Assembly (NCBI GenBank): GCA_021234155.1
Contig: JAJEKV010000040.1
Span: 4,613,229 to 4,677,228, forward strand
Reading direction: 5' to 3'
DNA from: Isoetes taiwanensis
Lineage: Eukaryota > Streptophyta > Lycopodiopsida > Isoetales > Isoetaceae
DNA: 64,000 bases
Within the stretch, counting starts at the first letter, position 1. Each line of letters begins with the position of its first letter. A program made the translations under genes and the position numbers. The notes under the pieces are model-generated. The model ran no database searches. It saw only the letters and a list, made by a program, of their open reading frames with translations, and had not been told where the DNA came from. Below, in pieces: positions 1 through 60,200 of this stretch.

Positions 1-22
1 TAATTATTTACAACAAAAGTTT

Positions 23-1255
23 CTAAGGGCGTTCTCCCTTAATGCGGGTCGCAAGACTCATGTCTTGTCGCATTAAGGTTACTCGCTTGGCGTGGATAGT
101 GCAGGCTGTTGAATCTTCAAAATGTTGCACTATCTTTGCCTCGCTGCCTCTTGCATTGCCGCCGGCCCTCGTCCGTGACTCTAAAGTCTGTTCTATAGGC
201 CTGCATAACTTCACGCACCAACCGAGCGAAGGGGGCACGGGGGATTAGGAGACCGAAGCTGCGCTGGAAGTGTCTAATCTCCCTTAACGCTCTTCTCTCC
301 ACCTCCTTCCTATCCGCTTTCTTCCTGGGTGGCGGCTTGGGAACCTTGGGCTTCGGTGGTGGCGGCCTTAGGGTTTGCTGCTTCGTTGGTCGCCCTCCCT
401 CGATGAACTTAACTCTGTTTTCTTCATAATATTTGTTATAGGCCTCCCATTTCTTCATGTAGGCCTCGTGCTCTCTCATCTTCCTCTCATAAATCTTTAC
501 CCTGTCGGTGACGTAGGCTTCGGGCAGGTGGTGGTTTCTTCTTTCTATCCCATGCGAGGTATTCAGGGGCTTCGCACTTGATCTTGGTGGGGTTGCTCAG
601 TCTTGGCTGCTCGGGTACTTCACGCTTCGTCGCTGGGTGCTTGGAAGAGCTCCCACTGCGGCGTTAGGGTTGAAGTCTTCATCGGAAGAGTCGTCGGAAG
701 GGTTTGGGGTTCGATCGGGTTGCCGCTCCTTGATAATAATGTTGGGGTTCGGCCTCTTCCTTGGCCGGGCAGTCCTTTGTTCTCCTTATGCCAGCCACGA
801 ACTTCCCTTTCGCTTTCTTCTTTTCTTACGCTACCTTTTGTTTCTCCTCCTTCCTTTTCCTCTTTTTGTCTTCCCTTCTCTTCTGCGGCTTTCATTACTT
901 CGATGAACCTTCTAAGGTCTGCTACCTCCATTTGGCTCGGACACATCACCTGCTCATCTGCTTTCGAGGATTTCCGTGGAGTGCGTCACGAGATGGTCTG
1001 CTTGTTCTGCTGCTGGATCTCCCGGCTCTATTTCTTCGGTACACCTCCCTCGTCTCTTCGTCCATGGAGTTGGTGATGTGGCCTCGTCCTCCTCCACTGC
1101 TGGTTGAAGACATCGATCAAATCGGAGGTGTCTTCCTCTTCGTCCAGTGAGCGACCCCTCTTGCGAGCCTCTCCCGAAGCATCTTAGAATGATCTACGCC
1201 CATTGGCTGGTGGTTTTGCAGGACGCTTCCTTCCGGTCTGTTTGGTTCGGGCCAT
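23..1255 (-). pseudogene. Histone H3-like (CENH3-like) gene with a very long N-terminal tail, broken
   Basis: The frame opens with MARTKQTGRKRPAKP, very close to the histone H3 N-terminus. An in-frame TAA (1186-1184) follows after 23 codons, and coding-like sequence continues in the same frame (DASGEARKRGRSLDEEED). Several frame changes occur between about 1110 and 500. From 479 down the frame is clean: a charged helix (EAYVTDRVKIYERKMREHEA) resembling helix 3 of an HMG box, a proline/lysine stretch, then the histone fold with ALREIRHFQRSFGLLIP and FARLVREVMQ. A one-base change near 160-172 shifts frame, and the fold resumes with IVQHFEDSTACTIHAKRV, TLMRQDMSLATRIKGERP and TAG at 25-23. IRHFQ, LLIP and RVTLMR resemble plant CENH3 more than canonical H3, but loop 1 is not lengthened as in CENH3. 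Canonical H3 is 136 residues; this is about 411 codons. It lies downstream of an LTR primer binding site on the same strand. It is either a captured or a degenerate histone variant. Confidence 0.8.
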
Positions 1256-1912
1256 GTTTTACTGGATCGTCAATCGGATAAAAGCGCCCGAAAGATCGCC
1301 CTAAGTTGGGGAGAGCGGATTTCTAGGGCTTGACGAAAAAAAATGAGGGGTTCTACATCTATTTATAGCTTGGGGAATTTTAGGTCAAAACTCAAGTTGC
1401 TCCGTTTAACATGCTAAGGCACCAACTTATCTAAAACTTATACTTATTTCAGACTTTTTCTACCTATTGGTCTCACAGCTTGCGCCTCGTTCCAATACTA
1501 ATGTTTAGTTTTGCGACCGGTAGCGGTGTGAGACATCATACATTTCTAGGGTTTTTAGGTAATTAAAACATGCTATTCTAACTAATTCCTACCTTAGAAT
1601 TAGCCTTACCACATTATTTATCTCAAATTCATCATGTTTTGGTGTTCTTGATTCGATGTCTCACACGCTTTGCCCGCTTCAAAACAAAAGTTAGTTTTCG
1701 CGACCAGCGAAATGCGGGAGACCACCTCACTTGGAAAATTTTGGCTCATTCTTTTTAATCTTGTTAAATTCCAATTCACTTAATTGTTACTAGCTTAGCA
1801 TAACTACAAAGGTGAGAAAAAATTTTTCCCACTTTTCGAGGCTTGAGGATCCTATCAAGTTAGTACTACTGGGAACATGGTCAGTGCTTTGCTCTTGGTC
1901 TCCAAGAACATT
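1256..1912 (-). other. Leader between the primer binding site and the H3-like frame
   Basis: This is the part of the LTR element between the primer binding site and the H3-like start codon. I found no gag-like frame on either strand. Two imperfect copies of a roughly 40-bp segment (near 1498-1537 and 1683-1725) share a TTAGTTTTGCGACC-like core and neighbouring motifs of the type GTGAGACATC. Their meaning is unknown. Confidence 0.4.
1358..1368 (-). promoter_or_regulatory. TATA box upstream of the H3-like frame
   Basis: On the minus strand the sequence reads CTATAAATAGA, a good plant TATA box. It lies about 100 bp upstream of the ATG at 1255-1253, a normal distance for a plant promoter. This suggests that the H3-like frame had its own promoter as well as the LTR promoter. 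It could be chance in A/T-rich DNA. Confidence 0.45.
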
Positions 1913-1924
1913 GCTCTGATACCA
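1913..1924 (-). other. Primer binding site for initiator tRNA-Met
   Basis: On the minus strand the twelve bases read TGGTATCAGAGC, the exact complement of the 3' end of plant initiator tRNA-Met and the usual primer binding site of plant LTR retrotransposons. One base separates it from the LTR edge at 1926. This fixes the element on the minus strand, with its internal region towards position 1. Confidence 0.9.
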
Positions 1925-2639
1925 CTGTGACGTCCCCTACTGTGATCAAATTGCACTCACCGTGATACAAACAGAGTTCTTCCCCCACACCAGCTCCATG
2001 CTGAGGGCCCTCCACATATCACTGCACCCGTAACGAGTCCCAGTGGGAAGAGTGAAGGTGTCATTCTACCCCGTCTCCCTCAGGGCCTACCTAGCTGCGG
2101 AAGCGTAAACATACATGTCAGTAGCACATACATCAACATCCTGTGACCATCTCGAAGGATGGTCCTCCTCATATCTGCATAGACAAAGATCAGCACATCA
2201 CATAGGGGATCCTACCCAAGGCTCAGACTCAAAGGATAACTGACGGCTTGGGTCTCCGTGAGTTCGTTCTGCATGTAATTCATGGCAATGGAATTGGTGG
2301 CATAAGAACATGGCATAGGGTTGTCCACTCCATCCGCCCCTCACATTGCACACTTTGCGAGTAGGCTGAAAAGTGTTGGGACGGCCGTAGCCCTCACGGG
2401 ATGCATAGCCAAAGGGGCTATTCACGGGTCTCATCCTCCCGGGCCCGATGGGGCGGTAGGGATCACTCCCTCCAGAGATCTACATGTCGACTCAAGGTGA
2501 CTAGAGGGCCCTTGCCTGTGATTCGATGAACCCACGGAAAGTGTACACCACTTCCACGGGTGTCGAGCCCATGCCTTACCCGCTTTTCGGTGGTAAGCCA
2601 TTAGACCTAGTCACAATGATCCCCGGTAGGCTTTACACA

Positions 2640-2735
2640 CCGGGGGATCGTTAGGAGTCGAACATGAACCTCCTTCTTAGCCCGGTCGGCCCCTCCACCC
2701 ACAACCGAGGTGTGGCTCTTGTACCACGAGGCCGA
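2640..2735 (-). repeat. tRNA-like Pol III promoter segment (SINE head) inside the LTR
   Basis: On the minus strand an A-box, TGGTACAAGAG (2726-2716), matches TRGYNNARNNG fully. It is followed after 51 bp by a B-box, TGTTCGACTCC (2664-2654), differing at one base from GGTTCGANNCC. Order and spacing fit a tRNA-derived SINE head or a tRNA relic that became part of the LTR. I could not fold a convincing functional tRNA from it. Confidence 0.45.
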
Positions 2736-3308
2736 ATCTGAAAGTGTGCTAGAGAGACTACTCTAGGAGCATCAACTACAAGCTTTAGGGCCTCTACCCC
2801 CTTCCCAATACAAGGAGTTCAATAAATACATCATCCAAATACATCACGTAAGAACTAAAGAACTAGATCCAATCATAGAGTTAGGTTCTTTAGTTAGTAT
2901 CCCAGATCTAAGATCTAGATAACTACTATGGGCAATTTAATAGTCTAAACCTACTGATTCTATGACTAGAAGACGGTTTAAGCTATTAAATTGACCAAAC
3001 ACCGATCCTTGAGTGGCTCCTCCCGACTGAGTTCAACCATCCTGGCTTTGCTGATCGAGTTGGGGGAAACCGATGGCGCAATTCGGCAGGCGTCTGGGAG
3101 GCGGTTTTGGCTCTGGGGCAGCCAAACTGAGCTCTAAAACCCTAAGGACCTAAAACTAGCAAGCTAGGGTTTTCCTACCCTAAATAGACATGGGGGTTTA
3201 GGCTAGGGTTTCCAATTACCCAATTTGGCATGTGGGATAATTGGAAAGGCCCCACTTGCCTTTAGTGGCTAGGTGGCAAAATATGCCAACATGGAAAGGT
3301 GTGCCCTC

Positions 3309-3334
3309 ATTAATGTGCACATGTGCACATTAAT
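3309..3334. repeat. 26-bp perfect palindrome in the LTR U3
   Basis: Thirteen bases (ATTAATGTGCACA) are followed directly by their exact reverse complement. The palindrome is centred on TGCACATGTGCA and lies next to an AT-rich TATA-like stretch. It may be a binding site for a dimeric factor or a cruciform-forming sequence. The palindrome is seen directly; the role is inferred. Confidence 0.7.
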
Positions 3335-3479
3335 AATATATGAACACTCCTAGTAAGTTGCCCCCTAGGGCTACTTACCTGGCTATCCGTTGGCGTACAC
3401 GTCAATCGGGGTGGCGTGTACGCGTGACGTGGCAGTACAATGTACGTCCTGGGAGCGTATACTGTGCTGGAACGTCACA

Positions 3480-4075
3480 ATTGCATATACTTGATTATAG
3501 ATCATAAACAAATTTCCCATTCAAGCATCGTCACTAATACTCTTTTTCATTTTTTAATGCAGCAGTCGAGAAGCTTGCCAAGAAGACTTCATTGCCTATT
3601 ATTTGATCACATGTATATATTATTGCAACGTTCTTAAGCTCAGAATTCAGATTTATATCACTTTAGGGCTGATTTATTTTTGAATTGTCAATATGGTTGC
3701 TGCTATAGCTTTCTGGGCTGTCATAACATGTTTTCGGACTCAAATGAGCCTTTAAGTAGCCTCGTTCTTGCTTATAGCAGGGCTGTAATAGACCCTAATT
3801 GGGCTGCCCCTTTGCTGCCCCCTTTATGCATTGGAATGTTTGGAATGTTTGCTGGAATGTTTGCTTATTGAGTTGGAATGTTTATTGGAATGTTTGCTTA
3901 TTGAGTTGACACTTTTTTTAATGAATTTAGGCCCCAAAATCAGAGTTCTTGTGCATGCTAGTTAGCTAGTATTTGTTAGATCTCTTATCATATTGTGTAG
4001 CTCATGTGCTTGCTTCACATGCAGATAAATAGCAGCACATAAGAATGTTCTTATTTGCCTTAGCGAGGGAGATGA
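3480..4075. other. No gene seen; short direct repeats
   Basis: This stretch separates the LTR from the transposase-like relic. It holds a cluster of direct repeats of TGGAATGTTT (about 3833-3900, five copies) with a repeated TGCTTATTGAGTTG. No supported coding sequence was found. Confidence 0.5.
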
Positions 4076-19295: not shown

Positions 19296-33985
<14,690 letters not shown>

Positions 33986-39200: not shown

Positions 39201-42200
39201 CGAAGAGCTTTTTCACCACGTCCCACGCGGAAATGAGACCTCTTAAGAACGGTGAGGCCTCAGAACTTGGTTTCAAGCCATAAAATAGAGACCATGGAAG
39301 AGATACTTGTATTGATACTTTAGCATGTGTGCAGGAGAAACATATGGCCTGCGTTATGAGTTGGAGGCCTGGTGACTTCGTTTTCTCCTCTAAAATATTC
39401 CACATAAATTTGGCTACTAGTATTTTGCTTTGTAGGGCTAAGTCAATCATGTCTATTCCCCCTTCTTCCTTATCTCTTTTACATTTCCACTATGCTATTT
39501 TCACTAATGCTCCTTCCTCGTTGCCTCCCCACACAAAGTTTCTAATTGTCCCTTCCATTTCTTTTACTTTCTCTGGTGGGGCTATGAGGAGAGATGAGAC
39601 ATAGATGTGCGTGCTGCACAGCACATGCTTCGCTACTACTATCCTGCCAGCCAGTGATAGTTTTGCGACTTTCCACCAATTCAGATGCTTCTGTAATCCT
39701 AATATCATCTCATTCCATACTTTTGTTGAGGGTACTTTAATTCCCACTGGGATTCCAAGAAGGTTAGAATACTCCCCAGCTTTTATGATTTTCCACGGGA
39801 GGCGCTCTAAACACCTGGGATGTGGTCCTTCCCCAGCCCATTGCGTCGAGCATTTCTTCCAGTTGATGAGACATCCTGAGGCCAAGGAGAAAGTATCTAA
39901 CAACTGACTGGCATTCTTTAGATTGCTCTCCTCTGCTACTAGAAACAAAAAAGAGTCATCTGCGTATTGATTGCATATCTGCTGAGATCCATCCCCCATT
40001 TGAAGACCTTCTACTAGACCATCCCTTGAGGCCTGTAGAAATAGCTGTGAAAAAGCTTCTGCTGCTATGTTAAATAAAAATGGGGCTAGTGGGCATCCCT
40101 GTCTAATGCCTCTTTCGATGACGAATATAGGAGAGGACTCCCCGTTGAGAAGAACAGAGGCCCGTGCGGAGTGGAGTAATCTCTTAACACTTCCAGTAAA
40201 AAATTCCCCGCAACCCAATTTTAACAGCATTTTATATAAAAAGCTCCACCTGATACTATCGTATGCCTTAGTAAAATCCAACTTGATGTAAGCTACTTTT
40301 TGACCTGTGTTTTTAGCCCAATACATACCCTCAAAAGCTGCTGCTATATTGTGCAGAATGTTCCTTCCTGGGAGAAAACCTGACTGGACGGGGGAGATAG
40401 TTTCTGCAAGTATGGGCTTTATTTTCTCTGCCATTCCCTTTGCTATTATCTTATAGAATGCCGACAGCAATGTGATGGGTCTCCAGTCATTGATAGTACG
40501 TGGGTCTTTTCCCTTTGGAATCAAAACGATACAACCTGTATTTAGCTTGGGATCCAGGTGGTCTGCTTGTTGGAAGTCTGTATAGGCTGAGAATACATCA
40601 GTTTTAATCCATTCCCAATAAACCTGAAAAAGCTCTATTGGAATCCCATCTATCCCCAGACACTTCTCTTTGTCGAGGGCGATGACTGCCTGATGCAAAT
40701 CATCTATAGATAGTGGGCGGCTCAACATTTGGTGTTGCTCATTTGTTATGACTGGAGACACCTTGGAAACCACTAACTCTTCAAACTCGTCCTGGAATGG
40801 CATACGCTTCTCACCGAAGAAGCTTTGAAAGTGATCGTGAAGAAACGTATGAAGCCCATCACAACTTTTTAGTATCGACCCATCATGATAGTGGACTTAC
40901 CATAATTTTGAGGATATTAAATGCTTGAATAAGCAATGGTCCATCCAGGTAGAGCCTTTGCAAGAGTGCCAGATTCAACGTACCGGAATCACCATGTTTT
41001 AGGATGGAAGTATCAATCCTAATCACGACATCATTGCAGAGGCGATGCACACCCATTCGAATGGAAGCTATCAGTCTGTGCTTCTTCACGGACAGATATG
41101 TATGCATGTAGCATTGAGGACCTCATGACAACGTGGGATTGATCTGTTGCTTGTAATGTGCCGTTTTAACCTGTTCCAAGGCATTCGCATCCCAAAATTT
41201 GTTAATGAAGCAAGCATCAAAGAACTGCCGCAAATGGTGGTGACCCTCTTCAGTTTGGACCTGTATGCACCTGTGCTTCTGCACATTCCATCATGAGAAC
41301 CACTGGACTCGTTTCTCCTTCCAACAGGCTTTGAAGCATTTTGGTCCCAGTGCCACATCATAATCAAGGTTGGGAGCCCATACCGACCACTTTCTGAACG
41401 TAGATGATGGTGGTCCAATGTAGCCCATTGAAGTGGCAAGAAATATGTTTCTTGTAGAAAAATCTAATAAGGAACTGTGGACTTTACCCCAAGTATGTGA
41501 GCCAAGAAGGCTTTCTGCATTTGTCGGTCATTCCAGGTGGCAAGGGATATTATTTGGCTCCAAACCTCAACCACACTGTATTAGAAGAACAGACTCTACC
41601 AGTGCTCTAGACAAGTGTGACTGATGGGCTCAAGCATACAGCTCTACTTTATGACTGTTGTTCTGCATGCCATACAATGCTTTCTACCATACTGTGATGC
41701 GTAGTCGGATGAAAGTGTATAAAGGTGGTCGAAGGGAACTCCACTCCCAGGTACTTGTAGGTGGGAGCTGCCTCCAAATTTTGCACGTGGTACATAAGAA
41801 GGAGCGCTTGGCTGGAGCGGTGATGAGACAAGCAGGACCTTACTCTTGGCCAAGTTGATGCGCATGCCAATGAACTGGAAAAAGGTGTCCAGAGTATCCA
41901 AATAGCATGCATGTCAGCTAGAATGTAGGCTAAGAGGTCCTCATCATCCGCATATATGAGCTGCCTAATTATGTGGTGTGGGAGCTAGGCTCCTGCTCCC
42001 TGGTGTTTAGTGAGAGGCTGTCCGGACGATATCAGGCAGTCTGAGCATGCCTCATACAACCTGTATATCGCATTTTGCAAATCCATAAGAGGGCCCCAAT
42101 TGCCACAATCTTATCCCGAGGCACAATGTCAAAAGCTTTAGACCGACGCTATTTATCAATTATATCATATAAAATCTAACATGGTTGTCCAACTATGGTC

Positions 42201-45200: not shown

Positions 45201-48200
45201 GGATAGAACTTACTTAAAGCTAAAACATATTTAAACCATGTCAGGAGATTATTTGATAATAATTTTGGAGGTAAAATACCTTCAAGTTTGTGGAACTCGC
45301 CAAATCTTCAAATATTGTAAGCGAAGAATCTTGATCTTTTTCTATAGGACATAATGTGTTGAAATTTCTTTTATATTTTTGTTGGACTAAGATTTATGAT
45401 GGAGGGTTTGACAAATAAACAAATATGTCGCATTACAAATATAACTTATCTCTAAGACATATATAATATACAACTTCCGTTTATAAAGTATTCTTCTATT
45501 TACTAAATATATACGGCTTGAACTAGCACCATAGATTGGGCCAAATAATTTTATAAGGATTGAATATTCTAATATTAGAAAGACATAGAATTGAATAGAA
45601 TAGAATAGATTTTTTAGCAAACCCCCGCCCCGAAGGGTTTTCGAGAGGAAAAACCTTAACAGTAATAAGTATGCTGGTATGCTGTGCAATTATATAGGAC
45701 AGTTCAATACCGTCCCGGAGGACACAGCTGAGTCTGTGCATCCATAACCTCCTGGAAGTATGACCCCAACAAACCCACTGACGCCATATTCAATAACTCA
45801 TGCAACAGTTGGCCAGACACTAGTAATCGAACATACCGCTCTCTGATATGGGCAAACGCTGGGCAGATCTGGAGGGCATGACATCCATCCTCAATGGCGC
45901 CCTGGTGGCAACACTGGCAAAGCCTTTGCTCTCGTGCTTCCCGAGCCCAATGTCCTATAACAAAATAGAAAAGGACTTAACTATACTAATAAAACACCAT
46001 CGTTTTTATTAATCAGTGGTGTAACCAAGATGAACTGTTTAGACTTTACGTCCAAGGTCGAAATAGTTTATTGCAAATATCTGTTACAATTTGTTGCATG
46101 ATGAATAAATTGGCTTACAGTCGTCATTCAATAAAACAAATATTATATACAACATGCATTCATTTTTAACTTATTTATATCTATCACAAAATAAGGTTGC
46201 TTCTTGTGTTTTTAGATAGGGCAAATTGTAACCATATCCCTATTTTTAAATTTGTGAAGATGCCCTAGTTTTAGGGGTATTTTTGACCCCGTCAGATGAA
46301 TTATATATAAGGATGATAACTTTCCATCAAGGCTAAAGTCACTTATCACAAGTTATGTTATTTTGTAAATACAAAAAAAGGATAACAACAACTTAATTTT
46401 TTTTTTTTTTTTTTTTTTGAGGGTAAGGTTTATATATATAAAAAGTATAAAAGTTATGTACAACAGATACCCTCTAGAGGGTAAGTAGAACATTGAGGTT
46501 GTTGGGGGGGGGGGTGGGAGGCAATACACATGTAAAAACCCCTTTCTTCTCCCAGAAGCGGGTACTATAGAGAGAGGCAACTCCATTCCAGTATTAGATC
46601 CCCTTAGCAATTCTTAGTCATGGATTCCTGGATAGATAGAGAACCTGAACCCCTGCCAGTGGCAACTTCATCTTCAGAATTATCTTAATCCTGGATAGAT
46701 AGAGAACCTGAACCCCCCAGTGGCAACTTCATCTTCAGAATTGTCATTATCCACCCAATGGCACTTAAAGAAGGAGTAGAACCCCACCAGGGTTCCTAAT
46801 CTATCAAGCCCCTTGTTGTAATTCATGTTTCTATGGTGTGATAACGCCATCAGAGCAACTTCCAAATTGATGGAGTTTTTTTAGCTTCATGATAGAGACC
46901 TCCTGACCACCCAGAGTTACACCACACCGATGCTTCCAAATCACCCAAAATGCCACATTCACCAGGGAGCTTGTATACAGCATCTGTCTGAAACCAAAAT
47001 CCCAACCTTGGCCAAACCAATTGGTGCATCACGAGCCTGATAATAGGACAAATCCACTGCCAGAACTCCGTTGTAAGTGGGCAGAAGAAGAGATGCTCAG
47101 TAGATTCTGTGGCTAGATAACCAAGTGGGCATTTGTCATCCACTACGATATCCTTGTTGAACAAACTTTCCTTTGTACTGAGTCCCCCTTGAAGAGCTGT
47201 CCATCTAAAGAACTGAATCTTCCTGAAACAGATAGACTTCCAGGAGTTAGCTAAAACAGTTTTAGCTACTAGATTACTCACCCCTAGCCTTTCCTCAGCT
47301 TTTTTTTTTTTTGAAGAACGTGTTTTACTTCATATTATACACTCAAAATATTACAAAGTACTTCCAGAAGTAAGAAATGTCCCTGAAGCATCAATCACTT
47401 TTAGATGATCACTCCATATTGGAATTTTAAGACGATCAGGCCAATTGGAGATCTGAAAGCAATTATATAACTTCTTACGAATTTCTTGAAGCACCACCTG
47501 AGAAGAAATACGCTTATCATAAAAGACCTTTCTTCGCCTTCGCTTCCATACACTCCATATTAGCCAAGACTTTGCCATGTGAAATGCAATCCTTTTAGAA
47601 GCAGTCCACTGATTTGGATAAATACCCAAAAGAAAGTGCTGACTATCCAAAGATACTCCAAAAGGAGAATGCAGCCAGGACCTAAGACTACTCAGCTCTG
47701 CACACAAATATAAACAGTGCTCCAATGTTTCAATGCACCGCTCACACATTGGGCAAAGTGGGCTTACTCCCGGTTTAAAGCGATGAATGATCTCATTAAC
47801 TCTCAAAGAGCGATGAATCACCTGCCAAAGTAGAACATTTACCTTTGGAGGATTATATTTAGACCAAACAAGGTTCCAGATGGATTGCCATTGAGAAGGC
47901 AAAGTCTGTAAGTGTCATTTTCGAGAAGGTGATAAAGTACTTGAGGAGGTAAGCAATCTGTAGCATGAACTTACTAGCTTCTTACCTTGAACAAAGTTCC
48001 AGCATCTCTTGTTACCCACCTTCTTAATTAGAGGAAGAGCACTTGCTACATAAGCCCATATACTAATATCTTTATCCAACAACCCATATGTGTCCTGAAA
48101 CCATTGCCAAGGAGCAATGTCAATACCAAAATACCACTGTTCAATAGAAATAATACCTGCTCTCCTCCACCTCGCTTGGGAATGCGCATGCATAAATTCT

Positions 48201-57200: not shown

Positions 57201-60200
57201 TATATGTAGTATACTTATGCCCCACAATAATGCCCATGAGGACACAAGAGCACATGAAGACTCAAACACGAAAAGCTCACAACTGGCACTAGGACTAGAA
57301 CCAAGAATAAATCAAGAATTGAATTGGACCCAAGACCACAATAAGATCAAGATTTGGATGCAATACTAATATCATACCATCTAAATTTGCTTGATGTCCA
57401 TCTACTCGTCATTCTTCTTTCGTAGTAAATCACGTTGTGGCCTATCTCTTGCATTATAATTATCTCTAAGTCCTTGCTAATAATAGAATACTCCATCATG
57501 GTAAACTATGAAAAATAAAGAGATAAAACTCTTAGAACTAGATAATTAGTTTTTCTTGTTCAAAATGTCAGTCATGGGCTCTCTTTTCTAGGTCTTGCTC
57601 TTAGTGCCTATCCAAGTCTTATACCTTCTAGCTTATGACTCTTGCATTCTTGTACAAGCTCTTGATTGTAATGCTATTTGATTGTAATGCTATTTGATTC
57701 TTGTACAAGCTCTTGATTGTAATGCAATTGGATTCAGGTTTTTAGGAAGTAACCATTTGAGTGGAAAACTCCCTGAAGAGCTTGAAAAGCTTAAAAGCTT
57801 ACAATATATGTAAGTATAGATTGTATTTTGATCAACGAAAATATATGATTTATGAGTTTATTTTATTTTCTTTAATATTTTGACAGAGACCTTTCATACA
57901 ATCAGTTGTCTGGATCGGTTCCCACATGGCCCAACATTTCTGGCTTGTTAGTATATGGGACTTCCTAAATTTATTTTCATCTTACTTAAAAAATGTGGCT
58001 AGGATAAAATTTAGTTTCTATTTCAGGAACTTAAACTGGAACCTGTTTGACACATCCAATTCCAATAGGCAAGTGTTAATCATGCATTGTATATTTGACT
58101 GGTGAATAACTATATATCTTCTCTCTTGCTCCATAAGGTTAGCTGCAACATTATTCAATTGTCTTGATTCAAAGTCCTCTTGCACCAGAGTAAAATCTGG
58201 AAAAAGTAAGTATACAATAATTAAAGATTAAATTAGAAAAAAAAAAATTCCAGTGTGATGATGTGAAATGCATACAGATGTTAAATTCAGTATCAATTGC
58301 GGTGGTCCACAACACGGTTCATATGATGATGATGATGATATAACTGACTTGGAGTACGCAAATGTTAGTATACATCGAAGTAAACATTGGGCAGTTAGCA
58401 ATACTGGCTATGTTATTACTATGGGTAGTGAAGTATTTGATCTTATTAGCAACACGGATAAAGAGATTGATGTTTCTAATATTCCAAAGGGGTCTACTAT
58501 TGAATCATCTATTTATCAAACAGCAAGAAGCTCTCCTATATCATTGAGATATTATGGCTTGGACATGGTAAATGGTAACTATTCTTTGGAGTTACATTTT
58601 GCAGAAATTGCAATAAGTGCAAATTCTTCAGAATGGCAAAGCACCGGAAAACGCCTTTTTGATATCTATATCCAGGTACATCTATATATAATAGTTTGAC
58701 ATAGACCACTAGGAATATTTGTTAGCTATGGTGCAATTCCAGAAGGATGATGATGAGCCTTTTAATAGTGATATCCATAAGACAATATAGTTTGATCTAG
58801 GGATAGTTTTAATTTACTCACCTCTCATATATTTCACGTTTGGTTAGGAACGCTTATACCACTTTTTGAAATTGCCTATGCTATATCATAATATAATATC
58901 AATATATATATATATGTAATTTATATTTATTTATTTATTTATATATGTAATTTCTAGTGGTGCTTCTGGAAGCTTCCATTATATATAAGCCGCCAGATCC
59001 TGGCCGTCCATCTGCTCCCGTGCAATCTCAACCGTCGGATTTGGTGGCTTCCGGAAGCTTCTTGGTGGCCCTCTAGTGGTCCATCTTGACCATCCATTTG
59101 TTTGGCGATCTCCCAATTTTTAGCCAAATTTTTTGTATTAGAAGGGAATTGAATCCCCAGTCCCCTCACCCCCATAAGGGAGTTTGGGAGAAACCCCGTA
59201 ACCAACTTTCCATACTTCCAATCAAGAATATATACGTGTTTATTTCTTGTTAAGGTTACCTCAAACCCTAATAGTTCTAGAATGTTCAGGATTGTTCTAA
59301 AATTTAGGGTTTGCACATATATCCCACATGCATAGATGCAAAAAAGAGCCTCATTTTCCAGTATATAAGGATGCTTAGGTCATGCAATGGAAAAGGTCAA
59401 ACCAAATTTTCCAACTTGGTAGAATTCAATTATATTGATTTTTGCAGTATACGAATAATACAAGGTCTATGAAATCCAATGTAAAAAGAGCACAATAACC
59501 CCATTCTTGTCTTTGGATATGTCCCCTACCCCCAAAAAAAAGAAAAAAAAAAGAAAAGAAAAAAAAAACCAAAAGAAAAGAAAGTTTTTCAAGGGAAAAG
59601 ACTAGACATGAATAAGCCTACTGATGAATATGTACCTGAGTGTGATATCAATGTTTTGTTGGATTAATAAAAACAATTCCTTGCAAGGATGTAAGTTCAA
59701 CACAATGATTTACTTGTACTTTCAATCTAGCAATATTAAATCATTATAACATCTTGAAGTACAAAAGCATCTAGTATCAAGAAAGCCAAGTTATGGTCAT
59801 TCATTCCTTGATATGCTCAAAATCATTTCATCACTTCTACACTAAGCAATGAGTACTTCCTAAGCTCAAAATATAGATAACCATCATCGAGAGCTCGATC
59901 ACGTCAAACTCGGCACCTCATTCCTATATATCACTTGTACGACGGTTACGGCTAGATCTCAGTGACTCAGAATAGAAACCTCATCTACAGCTTATATCCC
60001 ACATGCCAACAGAAGGAATATAGCGTTTTCACCAAGCACATAAAGCACATAAAGCACTTATATGCATAAAGCACATAAAGCACTTATATGCATAAAGCAC
60101 TCAGTTGTATACGAATCTTCAACCTGTAAAACCATTACAACCTACTGCCACTGCTTCTCATAGGCTGTTCTTGTAGTCAAAATATATTCACTGCCACTGC

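What the first reader, a model, noticed from the sequence alone, without database searches (positions are those of the whole stretch)
23..1925. A CENH3-like histone H3 frame downstream of an LTR primer binding site, on the same strand
Seen: LTR (3479-1926), exact tRNA-iMet primer binding site (1924-1913), then a frame starting MARTKQT and ending in a histone fold with IRHFQ, LLIP and RVTLMR. Known: IRHFQ- and RVTLMR-type residues are typical of plant CENH3; LTR elements sometimes carry host gene pieces. Inference: the element transduced, or evolved around, a histone H3 variant. A retroelement carrying a centromere-type histone could link its spread to centromeric chromatin. I know of no such described element.
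Basis: partly seen in the sequence, partly recalled or inferred. Interest (0 to 1): 0.9.

Follow-up and report, generated by a model that had tools for sequence, protein, structure and literature searches.

The report
Retrotransposon that encodes its own histone
A multicopy family of retrotransposons in a plant-like genome carries, as its first gene, an H3-family histone that leans towards the centromere type, and related elements in the same genome carry a near-normal histone H3, so these genomic parasites appear to have kept a chromatin protein of their own.

Summary
The window catches the 5' end of a 13.1-kb Ty3/gypsy chromovirus: LTR, tRNA-Met primer site, leader, then ORF1, which starts MARTKQT and ends in an H3 fold (Pfam 6.5e-10, 3.8e-8). 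ORF1 is broken in this copy. In the window's own genome follow ORF2, gag, protease, RT, integrase, chromodomain, PPT, a second LTR and a target duplication.

It is a family (A): 40 of 40 scored candidates match the PBS-to-H3 stretch, and 19 of 19 fetched copies keep the order LTR-leader-ORF1-H3-ORF2-gag-PR-RT. The ORF1 tail is constrained (pN/pS 0.25; leader 0.57-0.74); the fold's 0.32 is not separable from the leader. In a tree with recalled references the fold groups with plant CENH3 (96/92), yet lacks two CENH3 hallmarks.

A second group (B; 135 of 150 scored H3 matches) has the same layout in the one element read, and gag or ORF2 downstream in 7 of 7 others tested; its fold is strongly constrained (pN/pS 0.076).

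Best reading: chromoviruses that captured H3-family histones long ago and kept them. Function is inferred. Whether copies without the histone exist stayed untested.

The parts
1926..3479 (-). 5' LTR (1554 bp) of the element, TGTGACGT...ACGTCACA
   Evidence: 8-bp perfect inverted ends; second LTR 10.0 kb away at G000:C1046:4603572-4605126, 92.0% identical by blastn, K2P 0.0545
3480..3484 (.). target site duplication ATTGC (partner directly beyond the 3' LTR, outside the window)
1913..1924 (-). primer binding site TGGTATCAGAGC (tRNA-iMet type; the tRNA match is recalled)
1256..1912 (-). leader, stops in all three frames
   Evidence: two related hairpin-prone segments
23..1255 (-). ORF1, H3-like protein with a long inserted tail; broken in this copy
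   Evidence: an unbroken ORF1 of 403 aa exists in 1 of 19 fetched copies
1235..1255 (-). MARTKQT, the N-terminus of histone H3
   Evidence: MARTKQT in 14 of 19 copies, MARTK in 17 of 19
26..290 (-). H3-type histone fold (alphaN to alpha3), two frame slips inside alpha2 in this copy
   Evidence: PF00125 6.5e-10 and 3.8e-8

Best explanation
The window shows the 5' end of a decayed copy of a multicopy Ty3/gypsy chromovirus family (A) whose first gene encodes an H3-family histone with an enlarged tail. Shown: complete anatomy of this element; ORF1 region in every one of 19 fetched copies; purifying selection on the A tail and on the B fold; a second group (B) with the same ORF1-ORF2-gag order in the one element read and a near-canonical H3 fold. 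Inferred, about 0.4 likely: the ORF1 protein is made from the LTR transcript, pairs with host H4, enters nucleosomes, and by its altered tail changes how chromatin is read or silenced, favouring the element's expression or guiding integration. The capture is old. Whether A and B descend from one capture or two is open; the tree leans to two sources, CENH3-like for A and H3-like for B.
For: Element: second LTR, TSD ATTGC, PPT GGTGGGGGAGAA; Retrotrans_gag 5.6e-18, RVP_2 2.4e-9, RVT_1 7.2e-11, SH3_Tf2-1 5.7e-23, Chromo 6.2e-11. Family A: all 40 candidates scored, of 3860 first-look candidates, match practically the whole PBS-to-H3 query at 87-100% identity, the 100% being the window copy; order kept in 19 of 19 fetched. 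Selection, A: pN/pS ORF1 tail 0.25 (0.19-0.32) against leader frames 0.57, 0.74, 0.69. The window fold keeps the H3 residue at 24 of 30 columns invariant in seven recalled references but at 23 of 57 variable ones (Fisher p 0.0006). Selection, B: 190 pairs among 20 folds, pN/pS 0.076; 0.034 for the 27 closest pairs; host versus B 0.111; 18 of 20 folds without a stop. B in elements: one read across 16 kb as ORF1-ORF2-gag-PR-RT-RH and onward; 7 of 7 others have gag (6) or ORF2 (1) at the predicted place. A and B gag-pol are collinear by tblastx.
Against: ORF1 is open from MARTK through the fold in only 1 of 19 A copies, so most fetched copies cannot make the protein; 8 of 19 have an in-register stop in the tail. 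The A fold's pN/pS, 0.32 (0.19-0.52), overlaps gag-PR, 0.42 (0.34-0.53), and all three leader frames, 0.57 (0.39-0.85), 0.74 (0.51-1.20), 0.69 (0.48-1.06), so over 89 codons constraint on the A fold is suggested, not proven, by this test; the leader itself lies under 1, so the method is biased downwards. Starting from H3, neutral drift to 54% identity leaves no stop with probability 0.096, not a rejection. No LTR or primer site was found for the B element read. 127 of the 135 B matches were not placed in an element. Histone references are recalled. No expression data.
Confidence: 0.82

Rival explanations
1. The histone acts inside the virus-like particle: a basic, H3-derived nucleocapsid-like protein that compacts the element's RNA or cDNA rather than host chromatin.
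For: ORF1 lies first, before gag; the A tail is rich in K/R, E and P by eye (sequence printed).
Against: The B fold stays 84-88% identical to H3 over 88 aa, more than simple nucleic-acid binding would seem to need; gag of the B element read has a zinc-knuckle stretch of its own (PF00098 0.018 and PF13696 0.0047, both below the family cut-off).
Confidence: 0.2
2. Passive passenger: a captured host histone piece copied along with the element and without function.
For: Captured gene pieces are common in plant LTR elements (PMC7264820, section 0 part 1 of 3; PMC13317346, passages); 18 of 19 A copies have no whole open ORF1; the A fold's pN/pS cannot be told from the leader's.
Against: pN/pS of the A tail lies under all three leader intervals and that of the B fold is 0.076; present in 19 of 19 fetched A copies and in two diverged groups.
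Confidence: 0.08
3. A host H3/CENH3 gene or retrocopy that lies beside an LTR by chance.
For: The window alone shows only one LTR and a broken histone.
Against: Second LTR, TSD and gag-pol on the far side; same order in 19 of 19 fetched copies, on 17 contigs.
Confidence: 0.01
4. The A fold is not of CENH3 descent: it is a fast-diverged canonical H3 that drifted towards CENH3-like residues.
For: Loop 1 has canonical H3 length and there is no CENH3 tryptophan; an A fold in one frame matches host H3 at 52/89 and rice CENH3 at 56/89, a small difference; at 22 columns where recalled H3 and plant CENH3 share no residue the window copy has the H3 residue at 4, the CENH3 residue at 7 and another at 11; the second half of the window fold alone falls on the H3 side; MARTKQTARK is H3-like.
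Against: Tree of 22 rows: A with plant CENH3 96/92; A held together with B p-AU 0.030. With the window copy alone the tree was weaker (91/93; A held with H3 p-AU 0.062 and 0.056).
Confidence: 0.4

Closest known systems
H3L in a hAT DNA transposon of Pyrenophora tritici-repentis (PMC3538342; passages and section 20 part 1 of 2 read)
   Same: A mobile element amplifies an H3-like histone gene; insertions in the N-terminal tail; fold said to match neither H3 nor CenH3 completely.
   Different: DNA transposon in a fungus with 26 very similar genes; here LTR chromoviruses in a plant-like genome, two diverged groups, synonymous sites saturated in B, and a CENH3-leaning version.
Plant Ty3/gypsy chromoviruses (REXdb survey PMC6317226; passages only)
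   Same: gag-PR-RT-integrase with chromodomain; tRNA-Met primer site, as in most chromoviruses.
   Different: Two extra ORFs before gag, the first a histone. The survey's main text holds 'histone' once, about chromodomains; it sorts Ty3/gypsy extra ORFs into 314 groups, 21.4% of all extra-ORF proteins with a known domain, but the supplement that lists those domains was not seen, so a histone among them is not excluded.
Host-gene capture in plant LTR elements such as maize Bs1 (PMC7264820 part 1 of 3 and passages; PMC13317346 passages)
   Same: Host coding sequence carried between LTRs in the sense direction.
   Different: Here the captured gene is in 19 of 19 fetched copies and recurs in two groups, one under strong constraint; 'histone' occurs 0 times in the main text of either review.
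CENH3-chromatin-targeted retrotransposons (Tsukahara et al. 2025, seen only as a reference entry; the paper itself was not held)
   Same: Links LTR elements to CENH3 chromatin.
   Different: Those elements use host CENH3 chromatin (title and recall); here the element encodes a CENH3-leaning histone itself.

Membership tests
Ty3/gypsy chromovirus | two LTRs, primer site, PPT, target duplication | tested here: met
   (A, window element); in the B element read no LTR or primer site was found
Ty3/gypsy chromovirus | gag, protease, RT, integrase in that order with a C-terminal chromodomain | tested here: met
   pieces read apart; integrase by H2C2 (0.0023, under cut-off), SH3_Tf2-1 and p58_C; RNase H tested only in the B element
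Ty3/gypsy chromovirus | placement of RT in a named clade (Tekay, Reina, Galadriel, CRM, Tcn1) | not tested
   no reference RT set at hand
Histone H3 superfamily | H3 histone fold | tested here: met
Histone H3 superfamily | ARTKQT N-terminus | tested here: met
   A: MARTKQT in 14 of 19 copies; the B element read does not show it
Plant CENH3 | groups with plant CENH3 in a tree | tested here: met
   96/92 with in-frame A folds; references recalled, host CENH3 not identified
Plant CENH3 | loop 1 longer than in canonical H3 | tested here: not met
   same length as H3; hallmark recalled
Plant CENH3 | tryptophan (or tyrosine) at the start of alpha2 | tested here: not met
   valine in A; hallmark recalled
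Plant CENH3 | found at centromeres | not testable with these tools
   needs ChIP or imaging
Captured host gene as passenger | in one or few copies, no constraint | tested here: not met
   19 of 19 fetched A copies; constraint on the A tail and the B fold, not resolved for the A fold

The most novel reading that the evidence does not exclude
A chromovirus lineage builds its own nucleosomes: one group with a CENH3-type and one with an H3-type histone, whose altered tails make chromatin that resists silencing or marks sites for integration, so that a parasite writes the host's chromatin state directly.
Probability: 0.3. Interest if true: 0.96.

Novelty: new variant of a known kind. Interest (0 to 1): 0.88.

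Why it matters
Mobile elements are usually seen as targets of histone marks. An LTR lineage that encodes and maintains a histone of its own, with centromere-leaning and canonical versions side by side, would make it testable whether selfish elements change nucleosomes to escape silencing, to choose integration sites or to drive at centromeres. It also warns that counts of H3 or CENH3 genes in large plant genomes may be inflated by element copies: 135 of the 150 scored H3 matches here are not of the 97-98% type, and 8 of 8 of these that were tested lie in elements.

Tried and rejected
Close relatives in viral contigs and genome contigs and two patterns in viral contigs: none confirmed. Rfam on window 1-3600: none at E 0.1. 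NCBIfam on three pieces: none. Chance LTR beside a host gene: rejected. Neutral decay from H3 tested by stop counts alone: not rejected (P 0.096). First trees with the window copy alone gave 91/93 with plant CENH3; its two halves disagreed (first half 89/98 on the CENH3 side, second half on the H3 side). A second LTR for the B element: no repeat between the first 4 kb of the stretch and the next 6 kb, and no primer site within two mismatches in the first 2.6 kb. ORF2: no Pfam hit for the B version, a DUF72 match under cut-off for the A version, no PDB hit for B and one chance-level row (E 1.4) for A. Host CENH3: among 150 scored of 7073 candidates none stood out as one; the rows were not checked one by one. 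ORF1 tails of A and B: no similarity outside the fold. ORF2 of A and B: no significant BLASTP match for the piece tried, weak collinear tblastx pieces. A first pN/pS count used a wrong fold boundary and was replaced.

Not in print, as far as searched: ten full-text searches listed no paper that I recognised, from titles and abstract starts of the rows shown, as describing an LTR element with a histone gene; the fungal hAT case came up. Subscription papers and supplements were not searched.

Full report
Observation. On the minus strand the window holds an LTR (3479-1926), a tRNA-iMet-type primer site (1924-1913), a 657-base leader with stops in all frames, an ATG at 1255 that opens MARTKQTGRKR, and an H3 histone fold that ends in a stop at 25-23. 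Two pieces of the fold, read apart, hit Pfam Histone at 6.5e-10 and 3.8e-8 and H3 chains of the PDB. The best segment in each of 20 shuffled windows scored at most 10.0 bits against 48.5 and 38.9. ORF1 is broken in this copy: two slips in helix alpha2, and in a lowest-cost reading three more slips and one stop in the tail.

The rest of the element. To the left the second LTR lies at C1046:4603572-4605126 (92.0% identity by blastn with gaps; K2P 0.0545 over 1524 sites). The ends carry the duplication ATTGC, and GGTGGGGGAGAA precedes the 3' LTR. In between are Retrotrans_gag/Ty3_capsid, RVP_2, RVT_1, integrase pieces and Chromo. This is a Ty3/gypsy chromovirus of about 13.1 kb with two genes before gag. 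By eye the chromodomain keeps the middle tryptophan but lacks the first and last cage residues, which fits the type II described in PMC6317226 (passages). Its partner is not known, so I draw nothing from it.

A family, not one accident. All 40 candidates scored, of 3860 first-look candidates, match practically the whole PBS-to-H3 stretch at 87-100% identity (the 100% is the window copy); 45 further matches are short. The count is a lower bound. I fetched 10 kb around 19 of the 40: the window's own and 18 others. In 19 of 19 the pieces LTR, leader, ORF1 tail, H3 fold, ORF2 zone, gag, PR and RT occur in that order. ORF1 starts MARTKQT in 14 of 19 and MARTK in 17 of 19. These copies were found by their H3 region, so they cannot show how many copies lack it.

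State and selection of ORF1 in this family (A). One of 19 copies has a single open frame from MARTK through the fold, 403 aa beginning MARTKQTARK; in 8 of 19 the two halves of the fold share a frame. Among those eight, four folds are identical and the others differ in one short alpha2 segment or at the last two residues. pN/pS over the 19 copies is 0.25 (bootstrap 0.19-0.32) for the tail, 0.32 (0.19-0.52) for the fold and 0.42 (0.34-0.53) for gag-PR; the non-coding leader read in three frames gives 0.57 (0.39-0.85), 0.74 (0.51-1.20) and 0.69 (0.48-1.06). Copies with an in-register stop: tail 8, fold 1, gag-PR 16 of 19. The tail is clearly constrained. The fold interval, over 89 codons, overlaps gag and all three leader frames, so this test alone does not prove constraint on the A fold. 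In support, the window fold keeps H3 residues at 24 of 30 invariant columns but 23 of 57 variable ones (Fisher p 0.0006, recalled references).

A second group (B). A search of the genome with a recalled plant H3 fold scored 150 of 8784 candidates: 15 are 97-98% identical and 135 are 84-88% identical, with open frames up to 567 aa. Eight of the 15 were fetched and carry the fold; four show the MARTKQTARKS frame among five printed on one strand. I take the 15 to be host H3 genes. Of the 135 I read one (10 kb and the next 6 kb): ORF1 in an open frame of 476 aa ending in an H3 fold (PF00125 5e-42), ORF2, gag, protease, RT, RNase H, and a frame with integrase sequence that runs into a chromodomain-like stretch (the last two by eye). 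No LTR was found for it. For 7 others I fetched only 801 bases about 3 kb downstream of the fold: 6 hold gag and 1 holds ORF2. So 8 of 8 tested lie in elements; 127 are untested. Of 20 B folds fetched, 18 have no stop. Over 190 pairs pN/pS is 0.076 with synonymous sites saturated, 0.034 for the 27 closest pairs; host H3 versus B gives 0.111. This is the strongest evidence of function here. The saturated synonymous distance to host H3 argues against recent recapture.

A and B compared. Their gag-pol regions are collinear by tblastx, the longest pieces at 50-64%. ORF1 is alike only over the fold, 50/89. ORF2 shows weak collinear pieces, but the ORF2 piece tried in BLASTP gave nothing significant.

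What kind of H3. The window copy's fold is 48/89 identical to plant H3 and 51/89 to rice CENH3; at 22 discriminating columns it has 4 H3, 7 CENH3 and 11 other residues; its tree is moderate (91/93). With frames from other copies (6 of the 8 A folds, 7 of 20 B folds, 2 host H3, 7 recalled references), A groups with plant CENH3 at 96/92 and B with H3 at 87/89; A and B held together gives p-AU 0.030. Against CENH3: loop 1 has H3 length, valine stands where CENH3 has tryptophan or tyrosine, and the second half of the window fold alone falls on the H3 side. I call it CENH3-leaning, not CENH3. Host CENH3 was not identified.

Mechanism. Shown: anatomy, multiplicity, constraint on the A tail and the B fold. 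By recalled structure numbering, C110, H113, D123, L126 and R129 of H3, which hold the H3-H3 interface, are kept in A, so pairing is possible; not tested. Inferred: ORF1 is translated from the LTR transcript, pairs with H4 and enters chromatin. The tail is where A and B differ from H3: A keeps the K4 and K9 positions but, in the copy with an open ORF1, R follows K9 instead of S, and the B ORF1 read has no H3 N-terminus. A nucleosome with such a tail could be a poor substrate for silencing marks. A role in integration choice or in the particle is the alternative.

Known before. The nearest precedent is H3L in a hAT transposon of a fungus (PMC3538342, passages and section 20 part 1). Extra ORFs in plant LTR elements are common and mostly heterogeneous (PMC6317226 passages; its domain supplement not seen). 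Ten literature searches listed no histone-coding LTR element that I recognised.

I left the confidence unchanged, since it rests mainly on anatomy, on 19 of 19 copies and on the B fold.

Noticed in passing
window 1470-1537 and 1650-1727, minus strand: Two related leader segments of about 70 nt (42 invariant alignment columns); the first folds well (z -3.1), the second not clearly (z -0.9). The same unit recurs past the H3 stop, for example about 340 bases beyond it in the window's own element..
   Followed up: partly
L012:4233-4811 and L037:4573-6033(-): ORF2 between the histone and gag: no known family; the A version ends in a strongly acidic stretch, as histone chaperones often do (recalled).
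   Followed up: partly
L058 (G000:C1007:5616766-5622765): A second, related RT-integrase set lies downstream of the B element read, so elements of this kind sit close together there.
   Followed up: no
L010:1234-2323: A further LTR fragment of the A family, 81% identical and on the other strand, lies a few kb beyond the window element's 3' LTR.
   Followed up: no
window 1-1925 versus 3480-64000: CpG is far less depleted in the element's interior (observed/expected 0.79-0.87) than in its LTR (0.58) or the rest of the window (0.42).
   Followed up: no
window 25649-26062 and 27376-27876: Very long TC/GA microsatellite tracts that read as SLSLSL or RERERE in the frames.
   Followed up: no
window 39490-40896(-), 26482-27405(-), 46850-47329(-), 25052-25483(-), 58262-58699(+): Reverse transcriptase frames (LINE-like by eye), a zf-RVT frame and two malectin-domain frames, the latter as in plant receptor kinases.
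   Followed up: no
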